Source: Elusimicrobiota bacterium (lineage in GTDB: Bacteria > Elusimicrobiota > Elusimicrobia > Elusimicrobiales > UBA9959). From it: a stretch of 64,000 bases of DNA. The number at the start of each line of letters is the position of its first letter. Positions within the stretch are counted from its first letter, which is position 1. Below the pieces are notes generated by a model. It was given only the letters and a program-made list of their open reading frames with translations, had not been told where the DNA came from and made no database searches. Both the position numbers and the translations under genes were made by a program. The stretch lies in contig JAPLKI010000013.1 in NCBI GenBank assembly GCA_026388155.1, positions 124,001 to 188,000 on the forward strand, read 5' to 3'. Positions 45,624-64,000 of this stretch are shown one piece after another.

Positions 45624-48600
45624 ATGGCAATAATTAAGAATTTCAGAAACATCCTCCTATTCTCGTTTCGCAGGCTAGCCGCAAAAATTCTCTTGTCGGG
45701 TTTTTGCGGCTGTATAATTTTTGCGGTAAATTCATATGCGGTTGAAACGCCGACGGGTATTTATTTTGACGAGGTTTCCAGTAACTCAATAACGGCTTCT
45801 GGCTACGTTTCGACCGGGTTCACTGGGCTTGAAACGGGTTTGGCCGGTGTAAACGTGGCGATAAACGGAACCTATTCAACCTGGCGAAACGGCAATAAAT
45901 GGACGACAAAGGCGGCAATGCCGACGGCACGTTATGGCTTGGCAGCCGGAGTAATAGGCGGCAAACTGTATGTAGTAGGTGGAAGTGTTAGTGGTGGTAT
46001 GGGAAATACCAATGAGGAGTATGACCCTGCATCCAATACTTGGGCGACAAAAGCGGTAATGCCCACGGCCCGTGTGTATTTGTCAGCCGGAGTAATAGGC
46101 GGCAAACTTTATGCAGTAGGGGGAAATAATGGGAATCTCTTGAATACCAACGAGGAGTACGACCCCGCTTCCAATACTTGGGCGACAAAAGCGGGAATGC
46201 CCACGGCCCGGGAGACATTGTCAGTTGGAGCAATAGGTGGCAAGCTGTATGCCTTAGGGGGGGCGGGTGGGAGTTCCCCTAATACCGAGGAGTATGACCC
46301 CGTGAGCAATACGTGGAGCACAAAAGCCCCTATACCTACGACCCGCGCGGGTTTGGCAGCCGGAGTAATAAGCGGCAAGTTGTATGCCGTGGGGGGAAAT
46401 AATGGGGGATACTTAAATACCAACGAGGAATACGACCCCGCGAGCAATACTTGGAGTACAAAAGCAGTAATGTCCACGGCTCGTTATAATTTGTCAGTGG
46501 CTGTAATAGGCGGCAAGCTGTATGCCATGGGGGGGGCGAATCCGGGTTTTTTAAATAACAACGAAGAGTATGACCCGTGGGCGAATACGTGGAGTACAAA
46601 AGCAGTAATGCCCACGGCCCGTGAATACTTTTCAGTTGGAGTGGTAGGCGGCAAGCTGTCTGCCGTGGGGGGGTTGAATGGTGACTTAAATACCAACGAG
46701 GAGTACGACCCCGGCGTGGAGGCTTTGTTTACCGGCCTGACGCCGAACACGCAGTACAGCTTCAACGCCAAGGCACGCGATGCGGCCGGCGTGGAGACAG
46801 CCGAAAGCCCGACGGTTTCCACTTACACGCTGGCCGCCATTCCTGGCGCGGCAGTGCAAGCGTTTACTTCGGTATATGCCAGTTCGCTGACGGTTCAGTG
46901 GACATTAAGCAACAATCCAGCCGGCACTACCTTATACCGGGCGCAGGCGTCCACTGATTCGGCCTTCGGATTGGTGGCGGCATCGTCCGATACTTATAAC
47001 ATCAATGCAATATTAACCGGTCTTTCGGGCAATACCACTTATTACACCCGCGTGGCGGCTATAAATGGTAACGGGATAATAACAGCTTACAAAACGCTCG
47101 GCTCAACCAGGACTTTGGTTGAAACGCCGACGGGTATTTACTTTGATGAGGTTTCAAGCACTTCAATAACGGCTTCCGGTTACGCCGCTACGCCCGCGTT
47201 CAGCGGACTTGAAACAGGTTTATCAGGCGTAAACGTGGCGAAGGACGGGATTTATTCAACCTGGCGGAACGGCAATAAATGGACCACAAAGGCGGCAATG
47301 CCCACAGCACGTAATGTTTTTTCTGCCGGGATAATAGGTGGCAAACTGTATGCCGTGGGAGGATCGAATGGTGGTTACTTGAATATTAACGAGGAGTATG
47401 ACCCTGTGGCTAATACCTGGGCTACAAAAGCAGTAATGCCCACGCCCCGTCAGATGCTGTCTGTTGGGGTAATAGGAGGCAAGCTGTATGCCGTGGGGGG
47501 TGCTAATGGAAGCAACTTAAATGTTAACGAGGAGTATGACCCTACGGCCAATACATGGGCGACAAAAGCGGTAATGCCGACGGCCCGTAACGGTTTGTCT
47601 GTTGGCGTAATAGGCGGCAAATTGTATGCAGTGGGAGGATTGAACGGTATTTACTTGAATACCAATGAAGAGTATGACCCCGCGGCCAATACCTGGATGA
47701 TAAAAGCAATAATGCCCACGGCCCGTCAGATGCTGTCTGCCGGGGTAATAGGTGGCAAACTGTATGCCGTTGGGGGAGAGATTAGTCCTGCTAATGTTGT
47801 GAATACCAACGAGGAGTATGACCCCGCGGCCAATACATGGGCGACAAAAGCAATAATGCCAACGGCCCGTCAAAGATTGTCAGTCGGAGTAATAGGCGGT
47901 AAGCTATATATCGTGGGGGGAGACAATAATAGTGGTGTATTAAATATCAATGAAGAATACGACCCCATAGCCAATACCTGGGCGACAAAAGCGGTGATGC
48001 CCACAACTCGTCAGCATTTGTCATCCGGGATAATAGGCGGCAAGTTGTATGCGGTGGGGGGAGAGAACGGTGGTTACTTGAATACCAACGAAGAATATGA
48101 CCCCGGCGTGGCGTCATCGTTTACCGGTCTGGCACCCAATACACAATACAGTTTTAAAGCCAAAGCACGCGATGCCGCCGGCGTAGAGACAGTCGAAAGC
48201 CCGACAGTTTCCACTTATACTTTGGCGGCTGTTGCCATGCCGGCGAGTGGTCAACCGTTTGTGGCTGTTTATGTCTCCAGTATTACAGTAAACTGGTCCT
48301 CCGGCACGGCGGCTGGCGGGTTCAATGGCACCGGCGCTAGCTATAAAATTCAAATTTCAACGGCATCCGATTTTTCCGGTGTTTCTTCTTCTTCTGTTAC
48401 TTATTCCTTACAACTTACCACTTCCGGTTTATCGTCCGGTATCACTTATTATTTCCGCGCGCAGACTTATAATACGTTGGGGGTAACAGACTATTCCTGG
48501 CTGGTGCTGGGATCAACCAAGACTTTAACTTCGTCCTCGGGTATGACAGCGCCGACGGGTATTTACTTTGATGAGGTTTCCAGTAATTCAATAACCGCTT

Positions 48601-51600
48601 CTGGCTACGTTTCAACCGGGTTCACCGGGCTTGAAACAGGCTTGTCAGGCGTTAATGTGGCGAAGGACGGGATTTATTCAACTTGGCGGAACGGCAATAA
48701 ATGGACGACAAAAGCAGTAATGCCCACAGACCGTCGTGATTTGGCTGCAGGCGTAATAGGTGGTAAGCTGTATGTGGTGGGGGGGCAGGGTGGCGCCAAT
48801 AATGCTAACGAGGAGTATGACCCCGCTTCTAATACTTGGGCGACCAAAGCGTCAATGCCCACGCCCCGACTAGGATTGTCTGCGGGAGTAATAGGCGGTA
48901 AGCTATATATGGTTGGGGGACATCCTGCCTTGAGTACCAACGAAGAGTATGACCCCACGGCCAATAGCTGGACCACAAAAGCTGGGATGCCCACGGCCCG
49001 TGGTTTGGTGTCTGCAGGCGTAATAGACGGCAGGCTTTATGTCATAGGGGGATATAGTCTTGGGAGTATGTTAGATACCAACGAGGAGTATGACCCCGCT
49101 TCTAATACTTGGGCGACCAAAGCGTCAATGCCCACAGCCCGTTATCAATTGTCTGCCGGAGTAATAGGCGGCAAGCTATATGCAACAGGGGGAACTATTA
49201 ATGGTAGCAGCAGTTATTTGAGTGCCAACGAGGAGTATAACCCCGTATCCAATACCTGGACGACAAAAGCGGTAATGCCCACAGCCCGTTATGGTTTGTC
49301 ATCTGGCGTAATAGGCGGCAAGCTGTATGCCGTGGGGGGATATACTGTGAATTTATTGGATACAAATGAAGAGTATGACCCCGTGGCCAATACTTGGGCG
49401 GCCAAAGCGGTAATGCCTACGGCTCGCTATACTTTGTCAGCCGGAGTTATAGGTGGCAAACTGTATGCCGTGGGTGGGCAGGGTCCTAACGAAGAGTATA
49501 ACCCCGGCGTGGCGTTATCATTCACCGGGCTGACGCCCAATACGCAATACAGTTTCAAAGCCAAAGCACGCGATGCCAGCGGTGTTGAGACAGCCGAAAG
49601 CCCGACGGTTTCCACTTACACGCTGGCTGCCGTCCCTATCGCCGCAACGCCGGCGTTTACAGGTGTAAATTTAAACGCCATCACAGTTAACTGGACTCAA
49701 AACAACAATCCCGTCGGCACAACCTTATACCGGGCTCAGGCGTCCGTTGATTCAGCCTTTGGCACGGTGGCGGCGTCTTCCGATACTTATAATCTTAGCG
49801 CGGTTTTACCGGGCCTATCGGCTAACACTGTCTATTACGCCCGCGTAGCGGCCATAAACGGCAACGGGATAATAACGACTTATACTGTGTTTGGGTCAAC
49901 CAAGACTTTAACTTCGTCCTCGGCTATGACAACGCCGACAGGTATTTACTTTGATGAGGTTTCCAGTAATTCAATAACCGCTTCTGGCTACGTTTCAACC
50001 GGGTTCACCGGGCTTGAAACAGGCTTGTCAGGCGTTAATGTGGCGAAGGACGGGATTTATTCAACCTGGCGGAACGGCAATGTCTGGGTTGCAAAAGCTG
50101 TAATGCCAACGGCCCGCGATTGGCTCGCAGTCGGAGTAATAAGTGGCAAGCTTTATGCCGTGGGGGGAGAGATAAATAGTGGAAATACTATCTTAAATAC
50201 CAATGAGGAGTATGATCCTGTGTCTAATACCTGGGCGACAAAAGCCGTAATGCCCACGGCCCGTGGTTATTTGTCTGCCGGAGTAATAGGTGGTAAGCTG
50301 TATGCAGTGGGTGGATATTATAATGCGGAGTACAAAAACACCAATGAGGCGTACGACCCCGCGGCCAATACCTGGATTACAAAAGCGGCAATGCCGACGG
50401 CCCGTAATGCTTTGTCAGTCGGAGTAATAGGCGGCAAACTGTATGCGGTGGGGGGATGGAATGTAAGTCACTTAAATATCAACGAGGAGTATGACCCCGC
50501 GTTTAATACCTGGGCGACAAAAGCGACAATGCTGACTGACCGTTATGCTTTGTCAGTCGGAGTAATAGGCGGCAAACTGTATGCGGTGGGGGGATATGGT
50601 AGTAGTTACTTGAATACCAATGAAGAATACGACCCCGGCGTGGCATCTTCGTTTACCGGTTTAAGCCCCAACACGCAATACAGCTTCACCGCCAAAGCCC
50701 GCGATGCCAGCGGTGTGGAGACAGCCGAAAGCCCGACGGTTTCCACATACACCCTAGCCGCAGTCCCTATCACCGCAACGCCGGCGTTTACAGGTGTAAA
50801 TTTAAACGCCATCACAGTTAACTGGACTCAAAACAACAATCCCGTCGGCACAACCTTATACCGGGCTCAGGCGTCCGTTAATTCAGCCTTTGGCACGGTG
50901 GCGGCGTCTTCCGATACTTATAATCTTAGCGCGGTTTTACCGGGCCTCTCGGCTAACACTGTTTATTACGCCTGCGTAGCAGCCATAAACGGCAACGGGA
51001 TAATAACGGCTTACACAGCGCTTGGGTCCACCACTACGGTTGCGGCTGGCAACAGCGTACCCACGCTTGCCTGGACTGGCGAGAGCAATTATATTGCCGA
51101 CGGCCTTAACCCGGAAAGTGGTGACACAGCGACAAGTTTTGCATATCACGTGAAATACACTGACGCGGATAATGACGCGCCCGGAAGCGGATACCCGAAA
51201 GTGCATATCAAAAAGGGTGGCACTGAAATATCCGGCAGTCCGTTTACAATGACTTTTGTTTCAGGTGCCTATAATACCGGGGCAATCTATAACTATTCAA
51301 AGACACTGGCGGTGGGAACGGATTATACCTATTACTTTGAAGCGCTGGATTCCATCGGCGCCACCGCCACAGGGACACCGACATCTTCTGTGGACGCGCC
51401 GGATGTGTCATTAGGCAATAGTCCTCCAACGCTTGCCTGGACCAACGAAAGAGATTACACTGCTGACGGTCTTAACCCCGAAACCGGAGATACTTTGACA
51501 AGTTTTGTGTACCGCGTGAAATACACGGACGCGGATAATGACGCCCCTTTGAGCGGCTATCCGAAAGTGCACATTGAAAAGAGCGGCACGGATATATCCG

Positions 51601-52085
51601 GCAGTCCGTTTACGATGACTTTTGTTTCAGGGGCCTATAATACCGGAGCGATTTACACCTATCTAAAAACACTGGCTGCTGTGGGAACGGATTACACTTA
51701 TTATTTTGAGGCGCAGGATATACACAGCAATATGGCCTCTGGTTCGCCACTAAATTCAGTGGATTCCCCTGATGTGGCTGAAGTTGTGCAACAACATGGG
51801 AATTACAAAACCACTATGGGGGACAATTTGTTTAACCCAAAAACCGGCGGGACTTCAAAGGTTAAATTTAATGTCCCGGCGGCGGGCAGGGTCTCGCTGA
51901 AGATATATGATTTGTCGGGCAAGCTTATAAGGACGCTTTTTGAGGGCGATTCCAATTCAGGGAATATACAGAAAGACTGGGACGGCAGGGATGACAGCGG
52001 CCGCTATGTTGTCCCCAGTGTGTATTTCCTGCATTATGTGCACCCCGGCGGGAAAGAAGTCAGAAAAATCGGAGTAAAAAAGTGA
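45624..52085 (+). CDS. Giant secreted kelch-propeller/FN3 protein with FlgD-like C-terminal domain
   Basis: This is a 2153-residue protein with a signal segment (~20-40). Four propeller blocks contain 6, 6, 6 and 5 kelch units (23 in all), each ~47-52 residues with core MPTAR...GVIGGKLYAVGG...NTNEEYDP..NTW (read in parts). Each block is introduced by TPTGIYFDEVSSNSITASGY and followed by fibronectin-III-like domains. Two tandem Ig-like modules follow (~1812-2050, PTLAW...YTADADNDAP-like), then a C-terminal FlgD-Ig-like domain (VSLKIYDLSGKLIRTLFEG...DGRDDSGRYVVPSVYFLHY). Such tails act as sorting domains in type IX secretion or as surface anchors. It is likely exported and displayed, binding glycans or proteins. 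Its stop overlaps the PorV-CsgG gene (GTGA). Confidence 0.9.
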   Translation: MAIIKNFRNILLFSFRRLAAKILLSGFCGCIIFAVNSYAVETPTGIYFDEVSSNSITASGYVSTGFTGLETGLAGVNVAINGTYSTWRNGNKWTTKAAMPTARYGLAAGVIGGKLYVVGGSVSGGMGNTNEEYDPASNTWATKAVMPTARVYLSAGVIGGKLYAVGGNNGNLLNTNEEYDPASNTWATKAGMPTARETLSVGAIGGKLYALGGAGGSSPNTEEYDPVSNTWSTKAPIPTTRAGLAAGVISGKLYAVGGNNGGYLNTNEEYDPASNTWSTKAVMSTARYNLSVAVIGGKLYAMGGANPGFLNNNEEYDPWANTWSTKAVMPTAREYFSVGVVGGKLSAVGGLNGDLNTNEEYDPGVEALFTGLTPNTQYSFNAKARDAAGVETAESPTVSTYTLAAIPGAAVQAFTSVYASSLTVQWTLSNNPAGTTLYRAQASTDSAFGLVAASSDTYNINAILTGLSGNTTYYTRVAAINGNGIITAYKTLGSTRTLVETPTGIYFDEVSSTSITASGYAATPAFSGLETGLSGVNVAKDGIYSTWRNGNKWTTKAAMPTARNVFSAGIIGGKLYAVGGSNGGYLNINEEYDPVANTWATKAVMPTPRQMLSVGVIGGKLYAVGGANGSNLNVNEEYDPTANTWATKAVMPTARNGLSVGVIGGKLYAVGGLNGIYLNTNEEYDPAANTWMIKAIMPTARQMLSAGVIGGKLYAVGGEISPANVVNTNEEYDPAANTWATKAIMPTARQRLSVGVIGGKLYIVGGDNNSGVLNINEEYDPIANTWATKAVMPTTRQHLSSGIIGGKLYAVGGENGGYLNTNEEYDPGVASSFTGLAPNTQYSFKAKARDAAGVETVESPTVSTYTLAAVAMPASGQPFVAVYVSSITVNWSSGTAAGGFNGTGASYKIQISTASDFSGVSSSSVTYSLQLTTSGLSSGITYYFRAQTYNTLGVTDYSWLVLGSTKTLTSSSGMTAPTGIYFDEVSSNSITASGYVSTGFTGLETGLSGVNVAKDGIYSTWRNGNKWTTKAVMPTDRRDLAAGVIGGKLYVVGGQGGANNANEEYDPASNTWATKASMPTPRLGLSAGVIGGKLYMVGGHPALSTNEEYDPTANSWTTKAGMPTARGLVSAGVIDGRLYVIGGYSLGSMLDTNEEYDPASNTWATKASMPTARYQLSAGVIGGKLYATGGTINGSSSYLSANEEYNPVSNTWTTKAVMPTARYGLSSGVIGGKLYAVGGYTVNLLDTNEEYDPVANTWAAKAVMPTARYTLSAGVIGGKLYAVGGQGPNEEYNPGVALSFTGLTPNTQYSFKAKARDASGVETAESPTVSTYTLAAVPIAATPAFTGVNLNAITVNWTQNNNPVGTTLYRAQASVDSAFGTVAASSDTYNLSAVLPGLSANTVYYARVAAINGNGIITTYTVFGSTKTLTSSSAMTTPTGIYFDEVSSNSITASGYVSTGFTGLETGLSGVNVAKDGIYSTWRNGNVWVAKAVMPTARDWLAVGVISGKLYAVGGEINSGNTILNTNEEYDPVSNTWATKAVMPTARGYLSAGVIGGKLYAVGGYYNAEYKNTNEAYDPAANTWITKAAMPTARNALSVGVIGGKLYAVGGWNVSHLNINEEYDPAFNTWATKATMLTDRYALSVGVIGGKLYAVGGYGSSYLNTNEEYDPGVASSFTGLSPNTQYSFTAKARDASGVETAESPTVSTYTLAAVPITATPAFTGVNLNAITVNWTQNNNPVGTTLYRAQASVNSAFGTVAASSDTYNLSAVLPGLSANTVYYACVAAINGNGIITAYTALGSTTTVAAGNSVPTLAWTGESNYIADGLNPESGDTATSFAYHVKYTDADNDAPGSGYPKVHIKKGGTEISGSPFTMTFVSGAYNTGAIYNYSKTLAVGTDYTYYFEALDSIGATATGTPTSSVDAPDVSLGNSPPTLAWTNERDYTADGLNPETGDTLTSFVYRVKYTDADNDAPLSGYPKVHIEKSGTDISGSPFTMTFVSGAYNTGAIYTYLKTLAAVGTDYTYYFEAQDIHSNMASGSPLNSVDSPDVAEVVQQHGNYKTTMGDNLFNPKTGGTSKVKFNVPAAGRVSLKIYDLSGKLIRTLFEGDSNSGNIQKDWDGRDDSGRYVVPSVYFLHYVHPGGKEVRKIGVKK
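45890..50640 (+). repeat. Tandem ~150-base kelch-coding repeats in four blocks
   Basis: Twenty-three units of about 140-160 bases share near-identical DNA, for example GGAGTAATAGGCGGCAA and AACGAGGAGTATGACCCC. They are arranged in blocks at about 45890-46715, 47270-48105, 48700-49505 and 50085-50640. The blade linkers vary while the cores hardly do, even at silent positions. This points to recent expansion or gene conversion. Confidence 0.88.
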
Positions 52086-53800
52086 AAAAAGTAATTTTTT
52101 TACTCGCTTTCATTCTTTCTGCCGGCTCCCTGTCCGCCCAGGAAAGCGGTGTGTTTCTAAAGCTGCCGGTATCGCCGCGTGCCGGCGGAATGGGCGATGC
52201 TTCTGTCGCGCTTGCAGATGATCCTTTTGGCCTTTACTATAATCCGGCCGGGATGGCTTTTGCAAAGCATCCCGCGGTCTCGTTGGTTTATCAGAAATAT
52301 TTGCAGGACATAAGCGGGAACTCGCTGGGTTTTGTTTACCCTTTCAAAAACTGGGCGATAGGTATTGCGCCGACTTTTTATAACATGAAAGAGGAACCGA
52401 TTTATGACTCTCTAGGGGGAGATACAGGGGAAAAGTTCGGGTATGGAGCTAAAATAATCCCGGTCGCCTTGGCGGGGAAGAATGGGAACCTGGCTGTTGG
52501 TATTGCCGGCAAATCATACAGCGAGAATATAGGCGGACAGGTTTCTGCTACAACCGCCTATGATGTCGGAGCGATATATAAATTAGACAGGCTTAGTTTT
52601 GGGGCGGCAATGCAGAATTTAGGCGGAAAAATATTTGATTACAATGTACCAAAAATACAACGGGTCGGGGTAGCTTATACCGGCGTTAAATATTCCGGCG
52701 CGGCGGACTTAAAGAAAGAAGGTGAGGGTAAAAGTTTCCTTGGGTTTGGCGGTGCTTACAACCTTACCGAGTTGTTAAAATTACGCGGAGGCTGGCAGCT
52801 TAAAGACGAATTTAGTGGAATCACTTTTGGGTTGGGTCTTGATCTTGGGGGCCTGACTTTTGACTATGCTTGTGTAAGCTATGGAGACTTGGGAACAACG
52901 CATAAGGCGGGGGTTACGTGGGCTTTCGGCGCCAGGAAAGTGAGTGAGCAAGAAAGTGCGAAAGTGAGTATGCAAGAAGAGAAAAGAGTAAGTGAGCAGA
53001 TAAGTGAGAAAGCAATTATAAATTCCGCTCCTGAACTGGCCTGGACCGGTGAGGAGAATTACGTCGCCGTGGGGTTAAGCACCGGCGCGGGGAACACCAC
53101 CACGCCATTTGTGTACCGCGTGAAATACGCGGACGCGAATAACGACGCCCCGGCCGCCGGCTATCCTAAAGTGCATATCACTAAAGGCGGGGCCGAGGCT
53201 CCCGGCAGCCCGTTTGCCATGGAATATTCTTCAGGCGACAATAAGAATGGCGCTATTTACGCTCGAATGCAAAGGCTGGCGTCCGGCAATGATTATGCGT
53301 ATTATTTTGAAGCTAAAGATTCGTCCGGCGCGGCGGCTGCGGGAGCGCCTACTGTGGCGGTCAACGGCCCGATAGTTGCTCAGGCCGAAGTTGTAAATAT
53401 CCCCGGCGGAACGAATGTGGCCGTGGCGGACTTTAGCGGCAAGAACGTGTCGCAGGCGGACGCTTCAATAGTGACCGATTTCTTAAGGACAGAACTGGTA
53501 ACCACAGGGTTGTTCAATGTGATGGACAGGAACAACATGGATACCGTGCTGGCCGAGCAGAAGTTCCAGAACAGCGGCTGCACCGAGCAGCAATGCGCGG
53601 TTGAAATGGGCAAACTGCTAAATGTAAAGCAGATGCTTGTGGGCTCGCTCTCAAAGCTTTTGGACAACTATTATATAACGGTTAATGTGGTGGATGTGGA
53701 AACCGGCAAAATAATGGCGTCTTATGACAGCGAAGGCGTATCTTCCAAAGAATTGAAAGACGCATGCAAAAAAATAGTGGAAAAATTGTCCCGCAAGTAA
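52082..53800 (+). CDS. PorV-like outer-membrane protein fused to Ig-like and CsgG-type domains
   Basis: This is a 572-residue protein. GTG start overlaps the kelch gene's stop (GTGA). After a signal peptide (MKKVIFLLAFILSAGSLSAQ) comes a PorV/UPF0164-type barrel (~22-283: SPRAGGMGDASVALADDPFGLYYNPAGMAF, in parts). A charged linker (~284-313, SEQ/KVS repeats) leads to an Ig-like module (~315-430) homologous to the two in the kelch protein. A C-terminal CsgG/TolB-like domain (~446-572: VAVADFSGKNVSQADASIV, SGCTEQQCAVEMGKLL) ends it. PorV proteins carry CTD-bearing cargo to the cell surface in type IX systems; CsgG forms outer-membrane export pores. This combination is not one I know as a described protein. 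Confidence 0.85.
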   Translation: MKKVIFLLAFILSAGSLSAQESGVFLKLPVSPRAGGMGDASVALADDPFGLYYNPAGMAFAKHPAVSLVYQKYLQDISGNSLGFVYPFKNWAIGIAPTFYNMKEEPIYDSLGGDTGEKFGYGAKIIPVALAGKNGNLAVGIAGKSYSENIGGQVSATTAYDVGAIYKLDRLSFGAAMQNLGGKIFDYNVPKIQRVGVAYTGVKYSGAADLKKEGEGKSFLGFGGAYNLTELLKLRGGWQLKDEFSGITFGLGLDLGGLTFDYACVSYGDLGTTHKAGVTWAFGARKVSEQESAKVSMQEEKRVSEQISEKAIINSAPELAWTGEENYVAVGLSTGAGNTTTPFVYRVKYADANNDAPAAGYPKVHITKGGAEAPGSPFAMEYSSGDNKNGAIYARMQRLASGNDYAYYFEAKDSSGAAAAGAPTVAVNGPIVAQAEVVNIPGGTNVAVADFSGKNVSQADASIVTDFLRTELVTTGLFNVMDRNNMDTVLAEQKFQNSGCTEQQCAVEMGKLLNVKQMLVGSLSKLLDNYYITVNVVDVETGKIMASYDSEGVSSKELKDACKKIVEKLSRK

Positions 53801-55149
53801 TTTTTGTGGGACTATTAGCCTTATCCTGCCTGCCCTGCCGGGCGGGCGGCTTTAGTCCCGGTGACAGGGCGCCTGACTTTGAATTGTCGGACCTGACTGG
53901 CAAAACGATTTCGCTCTCCGATATACTCCGCGAGGACAAGCCGGTGGTTCTTTCTTTTTTCGGCACCTGGTGCGACAGCTGCCTTAAAGAAATGAACGAT
54001 CTGGCTGAAATAGCCCCAAAATATAACGCCGCCGTCTATCTTGTGGGAGTTGACGCCGATAAAGACAAACTGGTTCGGTTCGTAGAAAAACACAAAATAC
54101 CGTTTCCCGTGCTGTGGGATCCCAAAGCGCGGGTAATAGGCCGGAAATATGACTTATTCCGGGGGGCCTTTCTTGTGGTTCCCAAAGTGTTCATTATATC
54201 GCCCGCCGGCACCATTGAATATGTTTCCGAGGCTTATGATGAGGCAAGAAAGACCGCCTTGAAGAACAAGCTGGCTGAGGTGAGCGCGAAAAAGTGGAGG
54301 AAACTCCCCGAAGTCGCCGTTTTTTTCACCGGTTCGGCTAACGGTTGCCTGGAGCCGTCTTATTCTAACAAACAGACCTACGGTGGTTTTGTTAAACTTA
54401 TTTCTTTCCTTAAACAGCAAATCAAAAAATATCCCAGCTATATTCTGCTAGATTCGGGTGATTTCCTGCCTTATGCGGTTTCCGCCGCCCAGGCCGATTT
54501 AGCGCTTAAAGCCATGGGACTGGCGGGCTATGACGCCATAGCCGTGGGTGACCAGGACCTTTATTTCAGCGGGTATATTGATGTACTCAGGAGTGGGAAA
54601 CTTCCGTTTATCGCCTCAAATGTCGGTTGGAAGGCGGACAAAAGCGATTCTACCTCCGGTGTTGTCACGTTGCCAGCGGGCCAGGCGGATAAGACCATGG
54701 TTGCCGGCGGTATTAAAATCCGGATCGTGTCTTTTATAAGCCCTGAAACATTTTCACTTTACCCGGAGACGTTCACGGATAAAATTGGGTTCAGGGATTT
54801 GAAAGAAGTTTTAAAAGGCGGAAAAAATGCCGATTTTCTTATACTTCTTTCCCACGCTGGCGTTGAGGTAAATAAGAAAATGGCCGAAGAATTTAAAGAG
54901 TTTGACCTGATTATAGGCGGCCACTCGCAGGAGTTGCTTAACAAGCCGCTGAAAGCGGGGAATGCTTTAATAATCCAGTCCGGCAGCAATTTGCAGCACG
55001 CGGGCAAGATAGTTCTAAGATTTGACGGTAATAAAAAACTTTCGAATTACGACTACGAGATAGCGCCGTTGGTAAATGAAATCCCCGACGCCCCGCAGAT
55101 AGAAGCCTTGCTAAAAGACTATAAAAACCAAGTAATAAAAGAACCTTAA
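53764..55149 (+). CDS. Fusion of TlpA-like thioredoxin and 5'-nucleotidase-type metallophosphatase
   Basis: This is a 461-residue protein starting inside the previous gene (37-base overlap). A signal segment (~8-27) precedes a TlpA/ResA-type thioredoxin (~30-170) with active site TWCDSC (Cys70, Cys73). The second half (~182-455) follows the UshA-like metallophosphatase pattern: GSANGCLEPSYSNKQTYGG, LLDSGDF, GDQDLYF and LLSHAGVEVNKK...IIGGHSQE. Two usual metal ligands appear changed (GNHE to GDQD, GGHSH to GGHSQ), so catalysis is doubtful. Periplasmic. By operon position it may keep cysteines of the CsgG-type proteins, or of surface cargo, in the right redox state. Confidence 0.82.
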   Translation: MQKNSGKIVPQVIFVGLLALSCLPCRAGGFSPGDRAPDFELSDLTGKTISLSDILREDKPVVLSFFGTWCDSCLKEMNDLAEIAPKYNAAVYLVGVDADKDKLVRFVEKHKIPFPVLWDPKARVIGRKYDLFRGAFLVVPKVFIISPAGTIEYVSEAYDEARKTALKNKLAEVSAKKWRKLPEVAVFFTGSANGCLEPSYSNKQTYGGFVKLISFLKQQIKKYPSYILLDSGDFLPYAVSAAQADLALKAMGLAGYDAIAVGDQDLYFSGYIDVLRSGKLPFIASNVGWKADKSDSTSGVVTLPAGQADKTMVAGGIKIRIVSFISPETFSLYPETFTDKIGFRDLKEVLKGGKNADFLILLSHAGVEVNKKMAEEFKEFDLIIGGHSQELLNKPLKAGNALIIQSGSNLQHAGKIVLRFDGNKKLSNYDYEIAPLVNEIPDAPQIEALLKDYKNQVIKEP

Positions 55150-55270
55150 ACAGACTCCCCAACTGCCTTTTTGGTATTATAATGGCGTTGGGTCTATAAG
55201 GCCGCTGGAGGGCTTCGGGGGATAGCTGGTTGTGATAAAAAACCGGATGATATCTCGTACATAATAAAAC

Positions 55271-56659
55271 ATGAAATTCACCCGCAAATTTTTTTTAATG
55301 GTCTTGCCACTTTCGCTTTGCATTTTTGCTGCCGGTGCGGAATTAAGCCCTGCTGGAACGCTAAAGTCCGGGGGAGGCGGATTGAACTCCCTAGGCGTTG
55401 CCGGGAAAATACGGCTTGCCGTGCTGGAATTACCCGGAGATGAAATTCCCCGGGAAGCGGTTTCGCAGATAACAAAATTTATTAAAAATGAATTCGCGGA
55501 ATCCGACCGGTATAACGTCGTATCGGCAGAGGATATTGATACTGTTCTGACAGATTCTTCTATAAACCAGCGAGCTTGCCTGACTCCTAAATGTATAAGC
55601 GCCATGGGGCGCTTGCTGGGCGTGCAGCAGCTATTAGTGGGAACCGTTTCCAAATCTTCGGAAACATATGTAATTTCGGTGAAGCTGGCGGAGGCGGAAA
55701 AAGGAGAGACGCTTGCTTCTGTATATTTGGAGATATCAAGCGGACTACCGCAGGCTTACCGGCTGTTTAACACGAGGGAACAATCCGCCAAAAACACTAA
55801 ACGGACAAGCGCGTCGGTAGGCTTAATTACTGGCGCGGACGTGCCACACGAAGATGCGGGGGCAATAGGTAATTTTATCAGGACCATGTTGGCAAATAGT
55901 GGAGCATACCGAATTATAGAAAAGGGTGAAATGCTCAGAGTATTGGCTGAAAAGCAGTATCACACCCGCCTTTGCGCCGACACCGACTGCGCTGCCGATA
56001 TAGGCAGGTTGCTGGATGTGCGGCAATCGGCTGTTGGCATCATGTCCAAGTCTTCAGATGCGTACCATGCCGCGCTTGTTCTTGCGGATGTGGAAACCGG
56101 CAAAACGCTCGCTTCCGCCATACTTAATGTTTCATGTGATTCGGGCCTGGTTTGCGGATACCCGGTAAAAATCCCCGCTGAAACGTATCCGGTTGTGGCG
56201 GAATTGCCCGGATCAGCGGAAGCGGAAGCCGTCTTGCCGCTTATTAAACCATCCTCTGGACGGGATACAATTCACATAGCTGTGGCGGATTTCGCAGGCA
56301 AAAATGTTTCCCAGGCGGACGCTTCCATAGTAGCGGATTTTCTTAGAACCGAAATGGTCGGTGCAGGCGGGTTTGATGTGATGGACAGAGCGAATATGGA
56401 AACCGTGCTGGCTGAGCAGAAACTTCAGTCCAGCGGCTGTACGGAGCAGGAATGCGCGGTCCAAATGGGGAAATTACTTAATGTGCAGTTTATTGCCGTA
56501 GGTTCATTATCCAAGCTTCTGGATATTTATTTTGTCACGGTTAATTTAATTGATGTGGAAACCGGAAAAATAACTGCGTCCTACGACCATGACGCATCAT
56601 CGGCCAGGGAATTAAGGGGAGCATGCAAAAAGCTGGTGCAAAAACTGGCTGGGCACTGA
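55271..56659 (+). CDS. Secreted protein with three tandem CsgG/TolB-like domains
   Basis: This is a 462-residue protein with a signal peptide (MKFTRKFFLMVLPLSLCIFAAGA). Three homologous units follow, at ~45-165, ~180-290 and ~335-460. Each has an alpha/beta pattern with a Cys pair at the same place: RACLTPKCIS, RLCADTDCAAD and SGCTEQECAVQ. Each Cys pair is followed by GKLLxVQxxxVGSLSK-like helices and a strand ending DVETGK. The third unit is almost identical to the end of the PorV fusion, showing exchange between the genes. The paired cysteines may form a disulfide within each unit. Role inferred as outer-membrane secretion or envelope assembly. Confidence 0.83.
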   Translation: MKFTRKFFLMVLPLSLCIFAAGAELSPAGTLKSGGGGLNSLGVAGKIRLAVLELPGDEIPREAVSQITKFIKNEFAESDRYNVVSAEDIDTVLTDSSINQRACLTPKCISAMGRLLGVQQLLVGTVSKSSETYVISVKLAEAEKGETLASVYLEISSGLPQAYRLFNTREQSAKNTKRTSASVGLITGADVPHEDAGAIGNFIRTMLANSGAYRIIEKGEMLRVLAEKQYHTRLCADTDCAADIGRLLDVRQSAVGIMSKSSDAYHAALVLADVETGKTLASAILNVSCDSGLVCGYPVKIPAETYPVVAELPGSAEAEAVLPLIKPSSGRDTIHIAVADFAGKNVSQADASIVADFLRTEMVGAGGFDVMDRANMETVLAEQKLQSSGCTEQECAVQMGKLLNVQFIAVGSLSKLLDIYFVTVNLIDVETGKITASYDHDASSARELRGACKKLVQKLAGH

Positions 56660-56914: not shown

Positions 56915-57141
56915 ACCAACCATCCCAGAACTCTTAACTGGCCCGACATCCGCCGGGAGTGGGGGAGGTTTTCAAAATTTCAGAAAAACACCTCACTTTT
57001 TGTATTATAGCGAGAGGGTAATGCTTTTGCGAATTTTTTTAGGCGTCCGGAAGTTTCAGATGGGGGGGGAACTAACGATAAGCGCCCTTATCTGCGGGGA
57101 CTCGATATAAGTTTATTTAAATGTGCTTTAATGGAGGCAAT

Positions 57142-58560
57142 ATGAAGAAATTAATTCAATTCAGCCTGATACTGTCGGCAATAATAATTATTATCAGTGT
57201 TCCCGGAACACCTTCAATTCGCGACGCTCAGGCAGCAAATGCAATGATGATTCCATTTTGCCCTTCCTGCCATAAAAAGTGGAAAGATCATTGTTATATG
57301 TGCAAAGAACCTGACAACCGTTTGACCGATTTTGCGCATTTATGTGATGAATGCTTCAAGAAAACCGGCTTTATATCCGGGGCCCATGGTTGCGGTACCC
57401 CCTACAAGGGCTGGATGAGAATTTGCAGCAAGTGCGCGGCGAAAAACGTCTGCGCCAAGTGCGGAAAACCGTTGGGCGGTAAAGGAGCATCTGTTGGAGA
57501 GGATGAGAAAAGAGTGGTTGAGCGATATAAGGTGCGAATTACAATTCCCGGCAAAAAGGAAAAATTCCTTCAATATTATAATGCCGCAAATGAAGCCATG
57601 AAGAAGAAGGATTACCGGCAGGCCCTGGACTATTTCAAGAAATGCAACGAAATAATTCCCGACGGCTGCGCCTGCCAGATCGGAATAGCCCTGAGAGGAC
57701 TGGGAAAAGAAGAGGAAGCCGTCAAGTATTTTGATATTGCCATTAAGAACGACCCCGCCGATTACGAAGCCTACTTTCAAAAAGGTCTGGCCACTCTGGG
57801 TCAAGAAGGGTCTGAAGAATCTTTAAAAAAAGCCATAGACCTCAATGTGCCTTATGGGGATGCCTATCTCATGTACGCGTATTTAAGGGAATCCAATAAA
57901 GATAAGGATCAGGCAGTGATGTATTACGAAAAGGGGTTTGAACTTAAGCCTGATGAAATTAAATTCAGGGGAAATCTTATTGATCTCTATAAGCAGGACG
58001 GCAGGCTTGATGACGCCTTGCAGCAGGCAGATATTTCGTGCAAGCTCTCGGGTAATAGTCTAGAGTCGCTCAATATTAAAGGAGGGATTTTAATTGATGC
58101 AAAAAAATGGACCGATGCGATTCCAGTTTACGAGAAGATACTTTCAATGGCGTCGACCAATGTGGATGTCCCCTACTTCTTTCTTGGTTTAAGCCACTAT
58201 CAATTAAATCATTTTGAAAAAGCCAGAGACAACTGGAAGAAAGCTGTCGAAAAAGATGTGAACAATTATCCCGAACCCTATTCTTGCCTCGCGCTTTGTG
58301 AAATGAAGTTGAAAAACCCTGTTGAGGCTGAAAAGTACTGCGAAACAGCTCTTAAATTAACGAAGAATGAGAATTCGTTCGTTTATTACAACCTTGCGGG
58401 GGCATATTCATTATTGAACAAAACGGATAAAAGCATCGATTTGCTGGAGAAGGCTTTGAAGACAGGACGAGCCAATATCCCTCAAATAGAAGCGGACGCT
58501 GATCTGATTAATGTAAGACAAACCGAGAGCTACAAAAAGCTTGTATTAAAATACAAATGA
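57142..58560 (+). CDS. Zinc-ribbon/TPR secreted or membrane-tethered protein
   Basis: This is a 472-residue protein. GGAGG places the start at 57142. A hydrophobic N-terminal segment (~5-24, signal or anchor) is followed by a cysteine-rich region (~38-115) with four CxxC pairs (FCPSCHKKW, CYMCKEP, LCDECF, CSKCAAKNVCAKCGKPL). This suggests two zinc ribbons on the outside of the membrane, which is uncommon. From ~140 to the end about eight TPR-type helical pairs follow (YYNAANEAMKKKDYRQALDYFKKC, YFDIAIKNDPADYEAYFQKG, in parts). The gene is markedly AT-rich. The function is probably scaffolding of a protein complex; specific partners are unknown. Confidence 0.8.
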   Translation: MKKLIQFSLILSAIIIIISVPGTPSIRDAQAANAMMIPFCPSCHKKWKDHCYMCKEPDNRLTDFAHLCDECFKKTGFISGAHGCGTPYKGWMRICSKCAAKNVCAKCGKPLGGKGASVGEDEKRVVERYKVRITIPGKKEKFLQYYNAANEAMKKKDYRQALDYFKKCNEIIPDGCACQIGIALRGLGKEEEAVKYFDIAIKNDPADYEAYFQKGLATLGQEGSEESLKKAIDLNVPYGDAYLMYAYLRESNKDKDQAVMYYEKGFELKPDEIKFRGNLIDLYKQDGRLDDALQQADISCKLSGNSLESLNIKGGILIDAKKWTDAIPVYEKILSMASTNVDVPYFFLGLSHYQLNHFEKARDNWKKAVEKDVNNYPEPYSCLALCEMKLKNPVEAEKYCETALKLTKNENSFVYYNLAGAYSLLNKTDKSIDLLEKALKTGRANIPQIEADADLINVRQTESYKKLVLKYK

Positions 58561-60672: not shown

Positions 60673-60757
60673 CACTCCGCCATAACCCTTTAATAAAAAC
60701 AGGTTGCCGTCCCCTATTAGCCAAAATGTGACTTTGGATACTAAGGTAAAAAAACAG

Positions 60758-60787
60758 TTGACAAATAATTTCACCTTAAGGTATTAT
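60758..60787 (+). promoter_or_regulatory. Predicted promoter of the giant LamG protein gene
   Basis: TTGACA (60758-60763), 18 bases and TATTAT (60782-60787). An inverted pair CTAAGGT (60741-60747) / ACCTTAAG (60773-60780) brackets the -35 and could be a regulator site. Confidence 0.65.
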
Positions 60788-60808
60788 CCTTTTTACGTTA
60801 GGGCGGGT

Positions 60809-63800
60809 ATGTTTAAATATTTTTCTATTGAATCTATATCTTCCTTTAAAACCGCTTCCGTGGCGCGGGTCATTATTTTCTTCCTTTATTCATTTGCGTT
60901 TGCCGGTTTTGCCTCGGCCGGGCAGGCAACAGCCAACAGCCCAGCCAACGGGGCTTTCGTCAGCACCGCCAATCCGGTGATGACGTGGGACGGGACCAGC
61001 GGCAGTTTCGAACTGCAGCTCGCAACGGACGCGGGCTTCACGGATATCATCGCCGACTCGACTACGGCCAATAATTTCTACGTCTCGACCGCCAGCCTGA
61101 ATGCCGGCAGCTATTGGTGGCGGGTCCAGGAAGTAGGAAGCCCCTGGTCTCCGACGTTCAGTTTCGTGGTGGATATCGTCCCGCCGGCCTATTCCGGACC
61201 GCAGGTTTCAACTTCCCCGGCCGCCTCGTCCTGGACGGCTTTGCCCATGGCCACTTATCTTTCCACCAATGTGGTCTCGGCAAAGATTTCGGTACAGGAC
61301 CTGAGTTCGGGGCTTTTGGTCTCCACCGGTCTGCCAGACGGCCTCGTCGCCCAGTGGCACCTGGATGAGGGTGCGGGCACCGTAGCACTGGATGCCTCGC
61401 CCAACGCTTTTAACGGGAACCTGATCAATAACCCGGTTTGGACCAGCGGCGTCAAAGGCAAAGCTCTGGCGTTGAACGGCACACAAGAAGTTGACATTCC
61501 TTCCGCTGATGCCTTAAACGCTTATCCCCTGACCGCTTCAGTATGGTTCAAAACGAACGGGTCCGGCAGCACGACCGGCGCGATCCTCAGCAAATATGTG
61601 AGCGGCTATTTCAATGGCTACAGCGTCCATATGTATGGAGGACTTCTTTGCGCTTCTTATTTTATTAATGGTAATAACCAGGATTATGTGGATCCGGATA
61701 ATGACGGGTATTGTGGGTTCCGGATCCCCGGATTTGACGATGCCCAATGGCATCAGGCTGCTTTTGTAGTTGATTCCACGGGCGGCAACTTCTATGTGGA
61801 CGGCCTCCGGCGCGGCTATGTCGCCTGGAACGGTAATTCCGGCGCCCCGAGCACTACTGAGCCCCTTCGGCTGGGTGCCGGGTTTTTAGGTTATTTTCCG
61901 GGCGCGATCGATGAAGCGCGCCTGTATAACGTCGCCCGCTCATCCGCCGATATTCTGGCCGATTACCAGTCCGATACATTAGCCGCCCACAACCGCGGTC
62001 AGGCCTATAGCGTCCTTTACTCCACCAATGCCGGCTCCACCTGGAACTATGTTTCCACCAATAGCGTAACATTGGGCGGCTCCAACGGGACCAACGCGCT
62101 TCAGACTCTGGAGGCGGACAATATTCCGCTGGTCACCTCCGCTGGTCCGGGCGCGCCCACCAACCAGATAGCCTTCGTTACCTCTGATTTTGCCGGCAAC
62201 GTTTCCACCGCGGTCTATACCGTTCTGGTGGATACAATCCCGCCAACTTTGCTAAGCCCGGCCGACACTACCTATATCAACGCCATAAACCCGTTTATGA
62301 CCTGGACCGGGGCAATAGGCAATTCCCGCCTGCAGCTCGCCAGGAACCCTGGCTTCACGGATATCCTCGCCGACTCGACTACGGCCAATAATTTCTATAT
62401 CTCTACCAATAGCCTGAGCCAGGCGGCCACTTATTGGTGGCGGGTTCAGGAAGCCGAAATCTCCGATCTGAACGTCTGGTCTTCCACATTCAGTTTCATG
62501 GTGGACATTGCGTCTCCGGTCTATTCCGGGCCCCAGGTTTCCACCTCTCCTGCCGGGCTATTCGTGTCTACGGCTGCGTACCTCAGAGCGAATCCCGCCT
62601 CTATCCGGGTATCGGTGCAGGACTTGAACGCGGGGCTCCTCGTTTCCGCTGGGCTGTTCTCTTCAGCTGTGCTGCCCGAAGGCCTTATCAGACAGTGGCG
62701 TCTGGATGAGGGCGCGGGCACCCTGGCGTCGGACTCTTCCGGCAACGGCGCTGACGGCACACTGGTCAACGGCCCTGCCTGGGTCGCCGGCCACCGCGGC
62801 ATGGCCGTCAACTTCAGCGGAGCTTCCCGCATGGACGTTCCCTCCATTACTCTGGGCGCCAACTATACAGTCACAGCCTGGTCGCAATTCCCTCTAGCCG
62901 CCGGCGGCTATCACATTCTCATGCGCATGGGCTACGGCGATACGCACTCGCCCCTATGCGCGTATCAGAACATGTTGTGCGAGTGGCCAAGCGGTTGTAC
63001 TTCCGGCTTCGATTTGAGCACTCTGAGCGGCTGGCATCACCTCGCGGCCGTAGCCTCGGAGGGCTTAACTAACTTTTATGTGGACGGACTTAACGTAGGG
63101 CAGGTCGTAGGCAATGCCGCGGGCGTAACGGCGCAAACCGCGCAGTTCGGCGGAGACGCTATGGTGACAAGTCAGGTATGGGGCGGCGCGCTGGATGATA
63201 TCCGGGTTTATAACGTGGCGCGCTCGCCAGCCGAGATATTGGCCGAGTTCCAGGACAAAGCCTATGAGGTGCTTTACTCCACCAACGCCGGCGGCACCTG
63301 GCATCTCGTCTCCACCGACAGCGTCCATCTGAGCGGCGCCGACGGGACCAAAGCCACGCAGATATTAGAGGCCGACAACTTCCCTATCGTCACCTCCACG
63401 GAACCGGGCGCGCCCACCAACCAGATCGCCTTCACGGTCTCCGACATGGCCGGCAACGTTTCCACCGCAGTCTACACCGTTTTGGGGGACCTCACGGGTC
63501 CGCCGGCCCTGGCCGCTCCCGCCGACGCGGCCTATATCAGCACCACAAATCCGGCTATGCTCTGGACCACCGGGGTAATAGGTGATTCCCGCCTGCAGCT
63601 TGCGACGGATGAGGGATTCACAAATATCATCGCCGACTCGGTCACGGTCAACGCTTTCTATGCGTCAACAGGCTCGCTCAGTAATGCCGCCGCTTATTGG
63701 TGGCGGGTAAAGGCATACGACAACTTGATCAACGAGTGGACTGACTGGTCTTCCACTTTCAGCTTCGTGGTGGATATCGTGCCTCCCGTCTTTTCGGGCC

Positions 63801-64000
63801 CGCAGGTTTCCACCCCGGCCGCCCCGTCCTGGACGAATTTACCCATGAACGCTTATATTTCCACCAACGTGGTTTCGGCCAGGATTTCGGTGCAGGACTT
63901 GAGCGCGGGGCTTTTGGTTTCAACCGGCCTGCCCGACGGCCTCGTCGCCCAGTGGCATTTGGATGAGGGCACGGGCACCGTGGCGCTGGACGCATCAATG
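60809..64000 (+). CDS. Giant secreted LamG/Ig-like repeat protein (3' end beyond window)
   Basis: The frame from ATG 60809 is open for 1064 codons to the window edge, with no stop. A signal segment ends near FAFAGFASAGQA (~residue 37). Then come repeating modules of ~1.3 kb: an Ig/FN3-like part (NPVMTWDG...FELQLATDAGFTDI...YWWRV), a hinge PVYSGPQVSTSPA...SVQDLSSGLLVSTG, and a concanavalin/LamG-like domain (QWHLDEGAGTVALDAS...WHQAAFVVDSTGGNFYVDGL...DEARLYNVARS). A YSTNAGSTW and GAPTNQIAFV.SD.AGNVS domain closes each module. Two modules are complete and a third begins near 63785. It probably binds surface glycans or acts as an adhesin. It has its own promoter. Confidence 0.88.
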   Translation, partial: MFKYFSIESISSFKTASVARVIIFFLYSFAFAGFASAGQATANSPANGAFVSTANPVMTWDGTSGSFELQLATDAGFTDIIADSTTANNFYVSTASLNAGSYWWRVQEVGSPWSPTFSFVVDIVPPAYSGPQVSTSPAASSWTALPMATYLSTNVVSAKISVQDLSSGLLVSTGLPDGLVAQWHLDEGAGTVALDASPNAFNGNLINNPVWTSGVKGKALALNGTQEVDIPSADALNAYPLTASVWFKTNGSGSTTGAILSKYVSGYFNGYSVHMYGGLLCASYFINGNNQDYVDPDNDGYCGFRIPGFDDAQWHQAAFVVDSTGGNFYVDGLRRGYVAWNGNSGAPSTTEPLRLGAGFLGYFPGAIDEARLYNVARSSADILADYQSDTLAAHNRGQAYSVLYSTNAGSTWNYVSTNSVTLGGSNGTNALQTLEADNIPLVTSAGPGAPTNQIAFVTSDFAGNVSTAVYTVLVDTIPPTLLSPADTTYINAINPFMTWTGAIGNSRLQLARNPGFTDILADSTTANNFYISTNSLSQAATYWWRVQEAEISDLNVWSSTFSFMVDIASPVYSGPQVSTSPAGLFVSTAAYLRANPASIRVSVQDLNAGLLVSAGLFSSAVLPEGLIRQWRLDEGAGTLASDSSGNGADGTLVNGPAWVAGHRGMAVNFSGASRMDVPSITLGANYTVTAWSQFPLAAGGYHILMRMGYGDTHSPLCAYQNMLCEWPSGCTSGFDLSTLSGWHHLAAVASEGLTNFYVDGLNVGQVVGNAAGVTAQTAQFGGDAMVTSQVWGGALDDIRVYNVARSPAEILAEFQDKAYEVLYSTNAGGTWHLVSTDSVHLSGADGTKATQILEADNFPIVTSTEPGAPTNQIAFTVSDMAGNVSTAVYTVLGDLTGPPALAAPADAAYISTTNPAMLWTTGVIGDSRLQLATDEGFTNIIADSVTVNAFYASTGSLSNAAAYWWRVKAYDNLINEWTDWSSTFSFVVDIVPPVFSGPQVSTPAAPSWTNLPMNAYISTNVVSARISVQDLSAGLLVSTGLPDGLVAQWHLDEGTGTVALDASM

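What the first reader, a model, noticed from the sequence alone, without database searches (positions are those of the whole stretch)
45624..56659. Candidate secretion/display system: CTD-bearing kelch giant, PorV-CsgG fusion, redox fusion, triple CsgG
Four genes sit in order, the first three overlapping (GTGA, then 37 bases). The first product carries a FlgD-like C-terminal domain of the kind used as type IX sorting signals. The second is a PorV-family protein, the family that shuttles such cargo, fused to a CsgG-type domain. The third is a thioredoxin fusion and the fourth has three CsgG-type domains with conserved Cys pairs. No core type IX motor genes are visible. The set looks like a self-contained cargo-carrier-pore unit not described as such to my knowledge.
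Basis: partly seen in the sequence, partly recalled or inferred. Interest (0 to 1): 0.86.

Follow-up and report, generated by a model that had tools for sequence, protein, structure and literature searches.

The report
Type IX-like cargo-and-carrier gene cassette
A bacterium of the little-studied phylum Elusimicrobiota keeps, next to the gene of a giant surface protein, the gene of its own outer-membrane carrier and of a redox helper, and its genome repeats such cargo-carrier pairs about twenty times, which points to a protein-export system like one mainly known from Bacteroidota but without that system's recognisable motor.

Summary
The kelch giant ends in a sorting-type CTD. The second gene is a PorV barrel plus an Ig-like and a CsgG/LpoB-like domain. 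The fourth gene holds three LpoB-like domains. Gene 3 is more than a thioredoxin fusion: it is TlpA-like thioredoxin plus a UshA/SoxB-like phosphoesterase.
The unit is not self-contained. The genome encodes a divergent Sov/SprA translocon (E 2.4e-42; found in 60 of 61 order relatives), but no GldL or GldM was detected. The 'CsgG' domain resembles LpoB, not a pore.
The cassette is one case of a genome-wide rule. This genome has 28 PorV-family genes, 20 of them directly behind a CTD-cargo gene. In five genera, 62 of 88 CTDs sit directly before a PorV gene (chance below 0.06 per genome).
CTD > PorV-LpoB > Trx-phosphoesterase recurs twice in this genome and across several Elusimicrobiota families. 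One lineage keeps PorV and the LpoB-like domain as separate genes.
Best reading: a type IX-like export system with one dedicated PorV shuttle per cargo; in this subclass the shuttle has a periplasmic LpoB-like extension and a thiol-redox partner. Export is inferred; the role of extension and redox gene is conjecture.

The parts
45624..52085 (+). Cargo: giant kelch/fn3 protein (2153 aa) with signal peptide, two cassette-type Ig-like domains and C-terminal CTD
51045..51782 (+). Two Ig-like domains (aa 1808-2053) also found in the PorV fusion and in cargo of distant cassettes
51807..52082 (+). C-terminal sorting-type domain (aa 2062-2153), FlgD_ig / Por_Secre_tail-like
52082..53800 (+). Shuttle: PorV-family barrel + Ig-like + LpoB/CsgG-like domain (572 aa)
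52142..52951 (+). PorV-type outer-membrane barrel (aa 21-290)
52997..53389 (+). Ig-like domain of the shuttle (aa 306-436), homologous to the cargo's Ig-like domains; poorly modelled (pLDDT below 50)
53390..53797 (+). LpoB/TolB_N/CsgG-like domain (aa 437-572), Cys500/Cys505 pair
53764..55149 (+). TlpA-like thioredoxin domain (CxxC at 70-73) fused to UshA/SoxB-like (PCGU-family-related) phosphoesterase domain
53764..53800 (+). 37-nt overlap between shuttle and Trx-phosphoesterase genes, also 37 nt in most close relatives
55271..56659 (+). Three tandem LpoB/DUF2380-like domains with a Cys pair each; at this position G023 and L139 have a kelch + LpoB-like fusion
60704..64000 (+). Neighbouring second CTD-cargo gene, cut by the window end, followed outside the window by its own PorV gene (C13:189856)

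Best explanation
The cassette encodes one cargo of a type IX-like outer-membrane export system of Elusimicrobiota, plus that cargo's own shuttle. Proposed steps: (1) the kelch protein crosses the inner membrane by Sec (signal peptide: inferred from sequence). (2) It enters a SprA/Sov-type translocon encoded elsewhere in the genome (homologue shown; use inferred). (3) Its CTD is caught by the extracellular loops of the cognate PorV-family barrel docked on SprA, and cargo and shuttle leave laterally to the surface (by homology to the F. johnsoniae translocon; pairing supported by gene order and co-divergence). (4) In this subclass the shuttle carries a periplasmic Ig plus LpoB-like extension, which I propose anchors or pulls the shuttle from the periplasmic side, standing in for PorE-type anchors or for the undetected GldLM motor (conjecture, about 0.3). 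(5) The overlapping Trx-phosphoesterase gene's product keeps the cassette's thiols, such as the Cys pair of the LpoB-like domains, in the right redox state or acts on a phospho-substrate of the anchored complex (conjecture, about 0.3). The confidence given is for steps 1-3.
For: CTD-PorV adjacency: 20 of 28 PorV genes in this genome have a CTD gene directly upstream; 62 of 88 CTDs in five genera, expected under 0.06 per genome. PorV, not FadL. SprA homologue in three colinear stretches, E 2.4e-42, in 60 of 61 relatives. Co-divergence of CTD and barrel: r 0.575, p 5e-5 within this genome; nearest neighbours agree in 11 of 21 pairs against about 1 expected. In L056 and L089 barrel and CTD are both divergent while the LpoB-like domain stays 73-80% identical. 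Cassette conservation. Unfused PorV and LpoB-like genes in the same order in L162. Cys pair kept in all fused copies compared. Carrier cycle and dedicated shuttles in F. johnsoniae: PMC10994853, PMC12618676.
Against: No experiment; draft genomes only. SprA is below the equivalog cut-off (144.5 of 200 bits) and its profile finds no PDB entry. No GldL, GldM or C25 peptidase found, so energy and processing are unexplained; the C25 search had no ringing control. Co-divergence fades among deep paralogues (p 0.07 once pairs above 40% barrel identity are removed). The kelch cargo has only one cysteine outside its signal peptide, so it is an unlikely redox substrate. The unfused L162 LpoB-like protein lacks the Cys pair. 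The phosphoesterase has non-canonical metal-ligand positions, and the window's version lost the CxC motif.
Confidence: 0.72

Rival explanations
1. Self-contained cargo-carrier-pore unit: the PorV-CsgG protein and the triple CsgG protein form their own pore and need no other translocon.
For: No motor genes found; gene order.
Against: SprA homologue present. The domain resembles LpoB and has no predicted long membrane hairpins. Most of the other PorV-CTD pairs of this genome have no CsgG-type domain detected beside them.
Confidence: 0.04
2. Surface nutrient or redox enzyme complex: the kelch and Ig-like proteins bind a substrate, the PorV-like barrel is mainly an uptake channel (FadL-like), and the Trx-phosphoesterase processes the substrate in the periplasm; the CTD only docks the binder on the barrel.
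For: PorV barrels are FadL relatives; UshA/SoxB relatives are periplasmic phosphatase or sulfur enzymes; distant cassettes add a DUF1573-glutaredoxin-like protein with a hydrophobic C-terminal end.
Against: Cargo bodies vary freely (kelch, laminin-G, BNR, Ig, TIG) while CTD and barrel are kept; phosphoesterase metal-ligand positions depart from the canonical set; PorV beats FadL by about 27 orders of magnitude in E-value.
Confidence: 0.15
3. CTD and PorV are co-inherited outer-membrane partners (anchor and socket) but the cargo reaches the surface by another route, SprA having another role in Elusimicrobiota.
For: SprA is kept in 60 of 61 relatives, including the small-genome family f2, where the PorV query finds only 1-2 matches per genome; SprA sits beside LptF/LptG.
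Against: SprA, PorV and CTD together are the hallmark of T9SS export; no alternative exporter was seen linked to these genes.
Confidence: 0.09

Closest known systems
Type IX secretion system of Bacteroidota (SprA/Sov, PorV, type A CTD)
   Same: Sec cargo with C-terminal Ig-like CTD, PorV-family barrel, SprA homologue.
   Different: Outside the FCB group; about 28 PorV-family genes instead of few; shuttles encoded one per cargo; GldL, GldM and C25 peptidase not detected; SprA divergent.
Type B CTD / SprF (PorP-like) cognate shuttle pairs of Flavobacterium johnsoniae, some with a PorE-like anchor in the operon (PMC12618676)
   Same: One shuttle gene next to each cargo gene; some operons add a periplasmic anchor protein.
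   Different: Here the shuttle is PorV-family and the CTD type A-like; the periplasmic module is fused to the shuttle and LpoB-like; a Trx-phosphoesterase is added.
LpoB (PBP1B activator) / TolB N-terminal domain / CsgG core
   Same: Fold and sequence family of the C-terminal domain of the shuttle and of gene 4.
   Different: Not a free lipoprotein: fused to an outer-membrane barrel, in tandem triples or fused to kelch; no pore hairpins predicted.
UshA-like (seleno)protein family NF041198 (PCGU) and TlpA/ResA thioredoxins
   Same: Domain composition of gene 3; distant cassette members carry an ESCxC motif in the corresponding region.
   Different: Below the equivalog cut-off (75 of 275 bits); window copy lost the CxC; located in a shuttle operon.

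Membership tests
Type IX secretion system | SprA/Sov translocon | tested here: met
   TIGR04189 E 2.4e-42, 144.5 bits (cut-off 200), three colinear stretches; met as homologue, below equivalog cut-off
Type IX secretion system | PorV shuttle | tested here: met
   NF033709 over cut-off; 6h3i_F E 1.4e-31; fold hits 8gl6_F, 6h3i_F
Type IX secretion system | Cargo with C-terminal CTD at the very end | tested here: met
   TIGR04183: 20 hits in this genome, 17 over cut-off; at C-termini; FlgD and PorZ among fold hits
Type IX secretion system | GldL/GldM (PorL/PorM) motor | tested here: not met
   No hit to TIGR03517 or TIGR03513 at E up to 1 in a 96.9% complete genome; divergent motors could be missed
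Type IX secretion system | PorU-type C25 sortase | tested here: inconclusive
   No PF01364 hit, but no control genome rang
Type IX secretion system | GldK/GldN ring, SprE/PorW, PorE | not tested
Type IX secretion system | CTD-dependent export | not testable with these tools
   needs experiment
CsgG/curli secretion pore | Membrane-spanning hairpins and ring assembly | tested here: not met
   Predicted domain of about 130 aa shows short strands only; LpoB is the best fold match for it, CsgG not in the top 50. Ring assembly itself not tested
UshA-like PCGU (seleno)protein NF041198 | Score above 275 bits and PCGU/C motif | tested here: not met
   75 bits; motif reads NGCLEPSYS in the window, ESCxC in most distant members
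LpoB PBP activator | LpoB fold | tested here: met
   4q6z TM 0.69 (target length), rmsd 2.3
LpoB PBP activator | Lipoprotein that binds PBP1B | not testable with these tools
   fused to an outer-membrane barrel; binding needs experiment

The most novel reading that the evidence does not exclude
A T9SS-like exporter outside the FCB group that runs without the GldLM motor. Each cargo has its own PorV shuttle, and in this subclass energy or anchoring reaches the shuttle through a fused periplasmic LpoB/TolB-like handle (for example via Tol-Pal or peptidoglycan synthesis), under thiol-redox control by the product of the overlapping Trx-phosphoesterase gene.
Probability: 0.2. Interest if true: 0.88.

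Novelty: new variant of a known kind. Interest (0 to 1): 0.72.

Why it matters
[quoted passage not shown] Here an Elusimicrobiota order has a SprA homologue in 60 of 61 genomes, and in five genera studied PorV-family genes are paired with CTD cargo gene by gene. This makes a secretome predictable from gene order, including some very large CTD-ending frames of the phylum. It offers natural cognate and swapped CTD-barrel pairs to test what makes a shuttle specific. It also raises the question of how such a translocon works without GldLM.

Tried and rejected
Self-contained pore: rejected because a SprA homologue exists and the CsgG-type domain is LpoB-like. FadL-type porin instead of PorV: disfavoured by PDB profile E-values. 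Canonical UshA nucleotidase or SoxB: scores far below cut-offs, metal-ligand positions altered. SprA against solved structures: no hit by sequence or profile, so homology rests on TIGR04189. PDB sequence search with the LpoB-like domain alone gave chance hits. Redox substrate = kelch cargo: unlikely, one cysteine beyond the signal peptide. Terminator-like hairpin at 45676-45712 taken as a sign of a later start: not resolved, left open. Prior description: no paper found joining PorV, CsgG and FlgD, or Elusimicrobiota with T9SS as a finding.

Full report
Observation. Four same-strand ORFs lie at 45624-52085, 52082-53800, 53764-55149 and 55271-56659, overlapping by 4 and 37 nt and then separated by 121 nt. 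Pfam and NCBIfam confirm kelch/fn3 plus FlgD_ig CTD, PorV family plus CsgG/LpoB-type domain, and a TlpA-like thioredoxin. Gene 4 has three LpoB-like domains, each with a Cys pair.

Identity of the second gene. A profile of 28 sequences finds F. johnsoniae PorV (6h3i_F) at E 1.4e-31, then FadL at 3e-4. An AlphaFold2 model (pLDDT above 90 in the barrel and most of the C-terminal domain, below 50 in the Ig part) matches PorV of the T9SS translocon first (8gl6_F, 6h3i_F); its C-terminal domain matches LpoB (4q6z, rmsd 2.3) and shows no long hairpins of the CsgG pore type. So 'pore' is not supported. The CTD model (pLDDT around 90 or more over most of the CTD) is an all-beta domain with FlgD and the T9SS protein PorZ among its fold hits, though the top hit is neither and the matches are weak.

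Genome context. The window's genome (3.36 Mb, 96.9% complete) belongs to Elusimicrobiota, order Elusimicrobiales, judged by the titles of its relatives. It holds 28 PorV-family genes (29 listed matches, one gene split in two) and 20 TIGR04183 CTD hits. In four further genomes of other genera the rule holds: 62 of 88 CTDs in all lie within 700 nt upstream of a PorV domain, against under 0.06 expected per genome. A 1840-aa SprA/Sov homologue lies on contig C25 beside LptF/LptG and is present in 60 of 61 relatives. GldM, GldL and Peptidase_C25 profiles find nothing; the C25 search lacked a positive control.

The cassette. CTD cargo > PorV-CsgG > Trx-phosphoesterase occurs twice in this genome (window and C13:635-7949, L056) and in G015 (twice, with small insertions), G004 (frame of the shuttle broken), G023, G006, G032 and L139. 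In the closest 61 genomes the Trx-phosphoesterase occurs 10 times in 7 genomes, each time with a PorV-CsgG or CsgG-type gene next to it. In 295 genomes of the phylum it occurs 25 times in 22 genomes; by my count, 18 of the 25 lie directly behind a gene with a fused PorV-CsgG protein or its truncated remnant. L162 has CTD > PorV > separate LpoB-like gene > Trx-phosphoesterase, the unfused form. Four loci (L157, L159-L161) have no intact PorV-CsgG neighbour. Distant cassettes add a DUF1573-glutaredoxin-like protein with a hydrophobic C-terminal end. Cargo bodies differ between cassettes: kelch, laminin-G, BNR, TIG, Ig-like.

Pairing evidence. Across 21 cognate pairs of this genome, CTD and barrel identities correlate (r 0.575, permutation p 5e-5), nearest neighbours agree in 11 of 21, but the signal drops to p 0.07 when pairs above 40% barrel identity are removed. 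CTDs of the main cassette group are 69-88% identical to the window's where barrels are 51-79% identical, and both diverge in L056 and L089 while their LpoB-like domains stay 73-80% identical. A third, G015d (L141), also has an LpoB-like domain 88% identical on a barrel of only 29%, but without a CTD gene upstream. So the periplasmic module has been combined with several barrels, and barrel and CTD tend to go together.

Distribution. The cassette is absent from the two same-genus genomes but present in other genera. The window's Trx-phosphoesterase is 79% identical to that of G015 although SprA of the two is 67% identical, while within genus g4 the same protein is less conserved than SprA (G023-G032: 58% against 76%). 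This suggests transfer between genera; I did not test it with a formal reconciliation.

Mechanism. In F. johnsoniae PorV docks at the lateral gate of SprA, binds the CTD and is extracted with the cargo in an energy-dependent step (PMC10994853); type B cargo have dedicated SprF-like shuttles, some with a PorE-like peptidoglycan anchor in the operon (PMC12618676). By analogy each PorV here serves its neighbour cargo. The LpoB-like extension would be periplasmic and could anchor or pull the shuttle; the Trx domain could service the Cys pair of the LpoB-like domains, which is kept in the fused copies compared but missing in the unfused L162 copy. These last two steps are conjecture.

Literature. 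The searched library (open-licence PMC) holds no paper describing T9SS in Elusimicrobiota; PMC11285876 states T9SS genes are absent outside FCB phyla. Subscription papers and preprints were not searchable, so priority is not proven.

Noticed in passing
G010:C11:39513, G013:C54:24892, G023:C35:268907, G012:C6:189665, G000:C10:32120: CTD hits in huge open frames (17,613, 16,223, 14,446, 13,077 and 10,805 codons), three of them (G013, G023, G000) directly before a PorV gene: giant surface proteins look like CTD cargo.
   Followed up: no
window 60704-64000 and C13:184704-190785: A second CTD-cargo/PorV pair starts 4 kb right of the cassette and is cut by the window end.
   Followed up: partly
window 45676-45712: A 15-bp terminator-like hairpin with T-rich tail overlaps the signal-peptide codons of the kelch gene; its start codon or leader may need a second look.
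   Followed up: partly
L055:7176-8345, L057, L060, L064, L069, L074, L075: Other PorV proteins of this genome carry long extensions of different kinds (500-680 aa proteins; L055 with what looks like TPR), so PorV fused to extra modules is common here; not classified.
   Followed up: no
L056:7971-8420, L072 (148 aa), L157:8436-8894, L160:4519-4980: A conserved LPP20-like lipoprotein of about 150 aa recurs next to PorV or Trx-phosphoesterase genes across families.
   Followed up: partly
window 57121-58560: TPR protein with an N-terminal zinc-ribbon-like Cys cluster follows the cassette; no link found.
   Followed up: no
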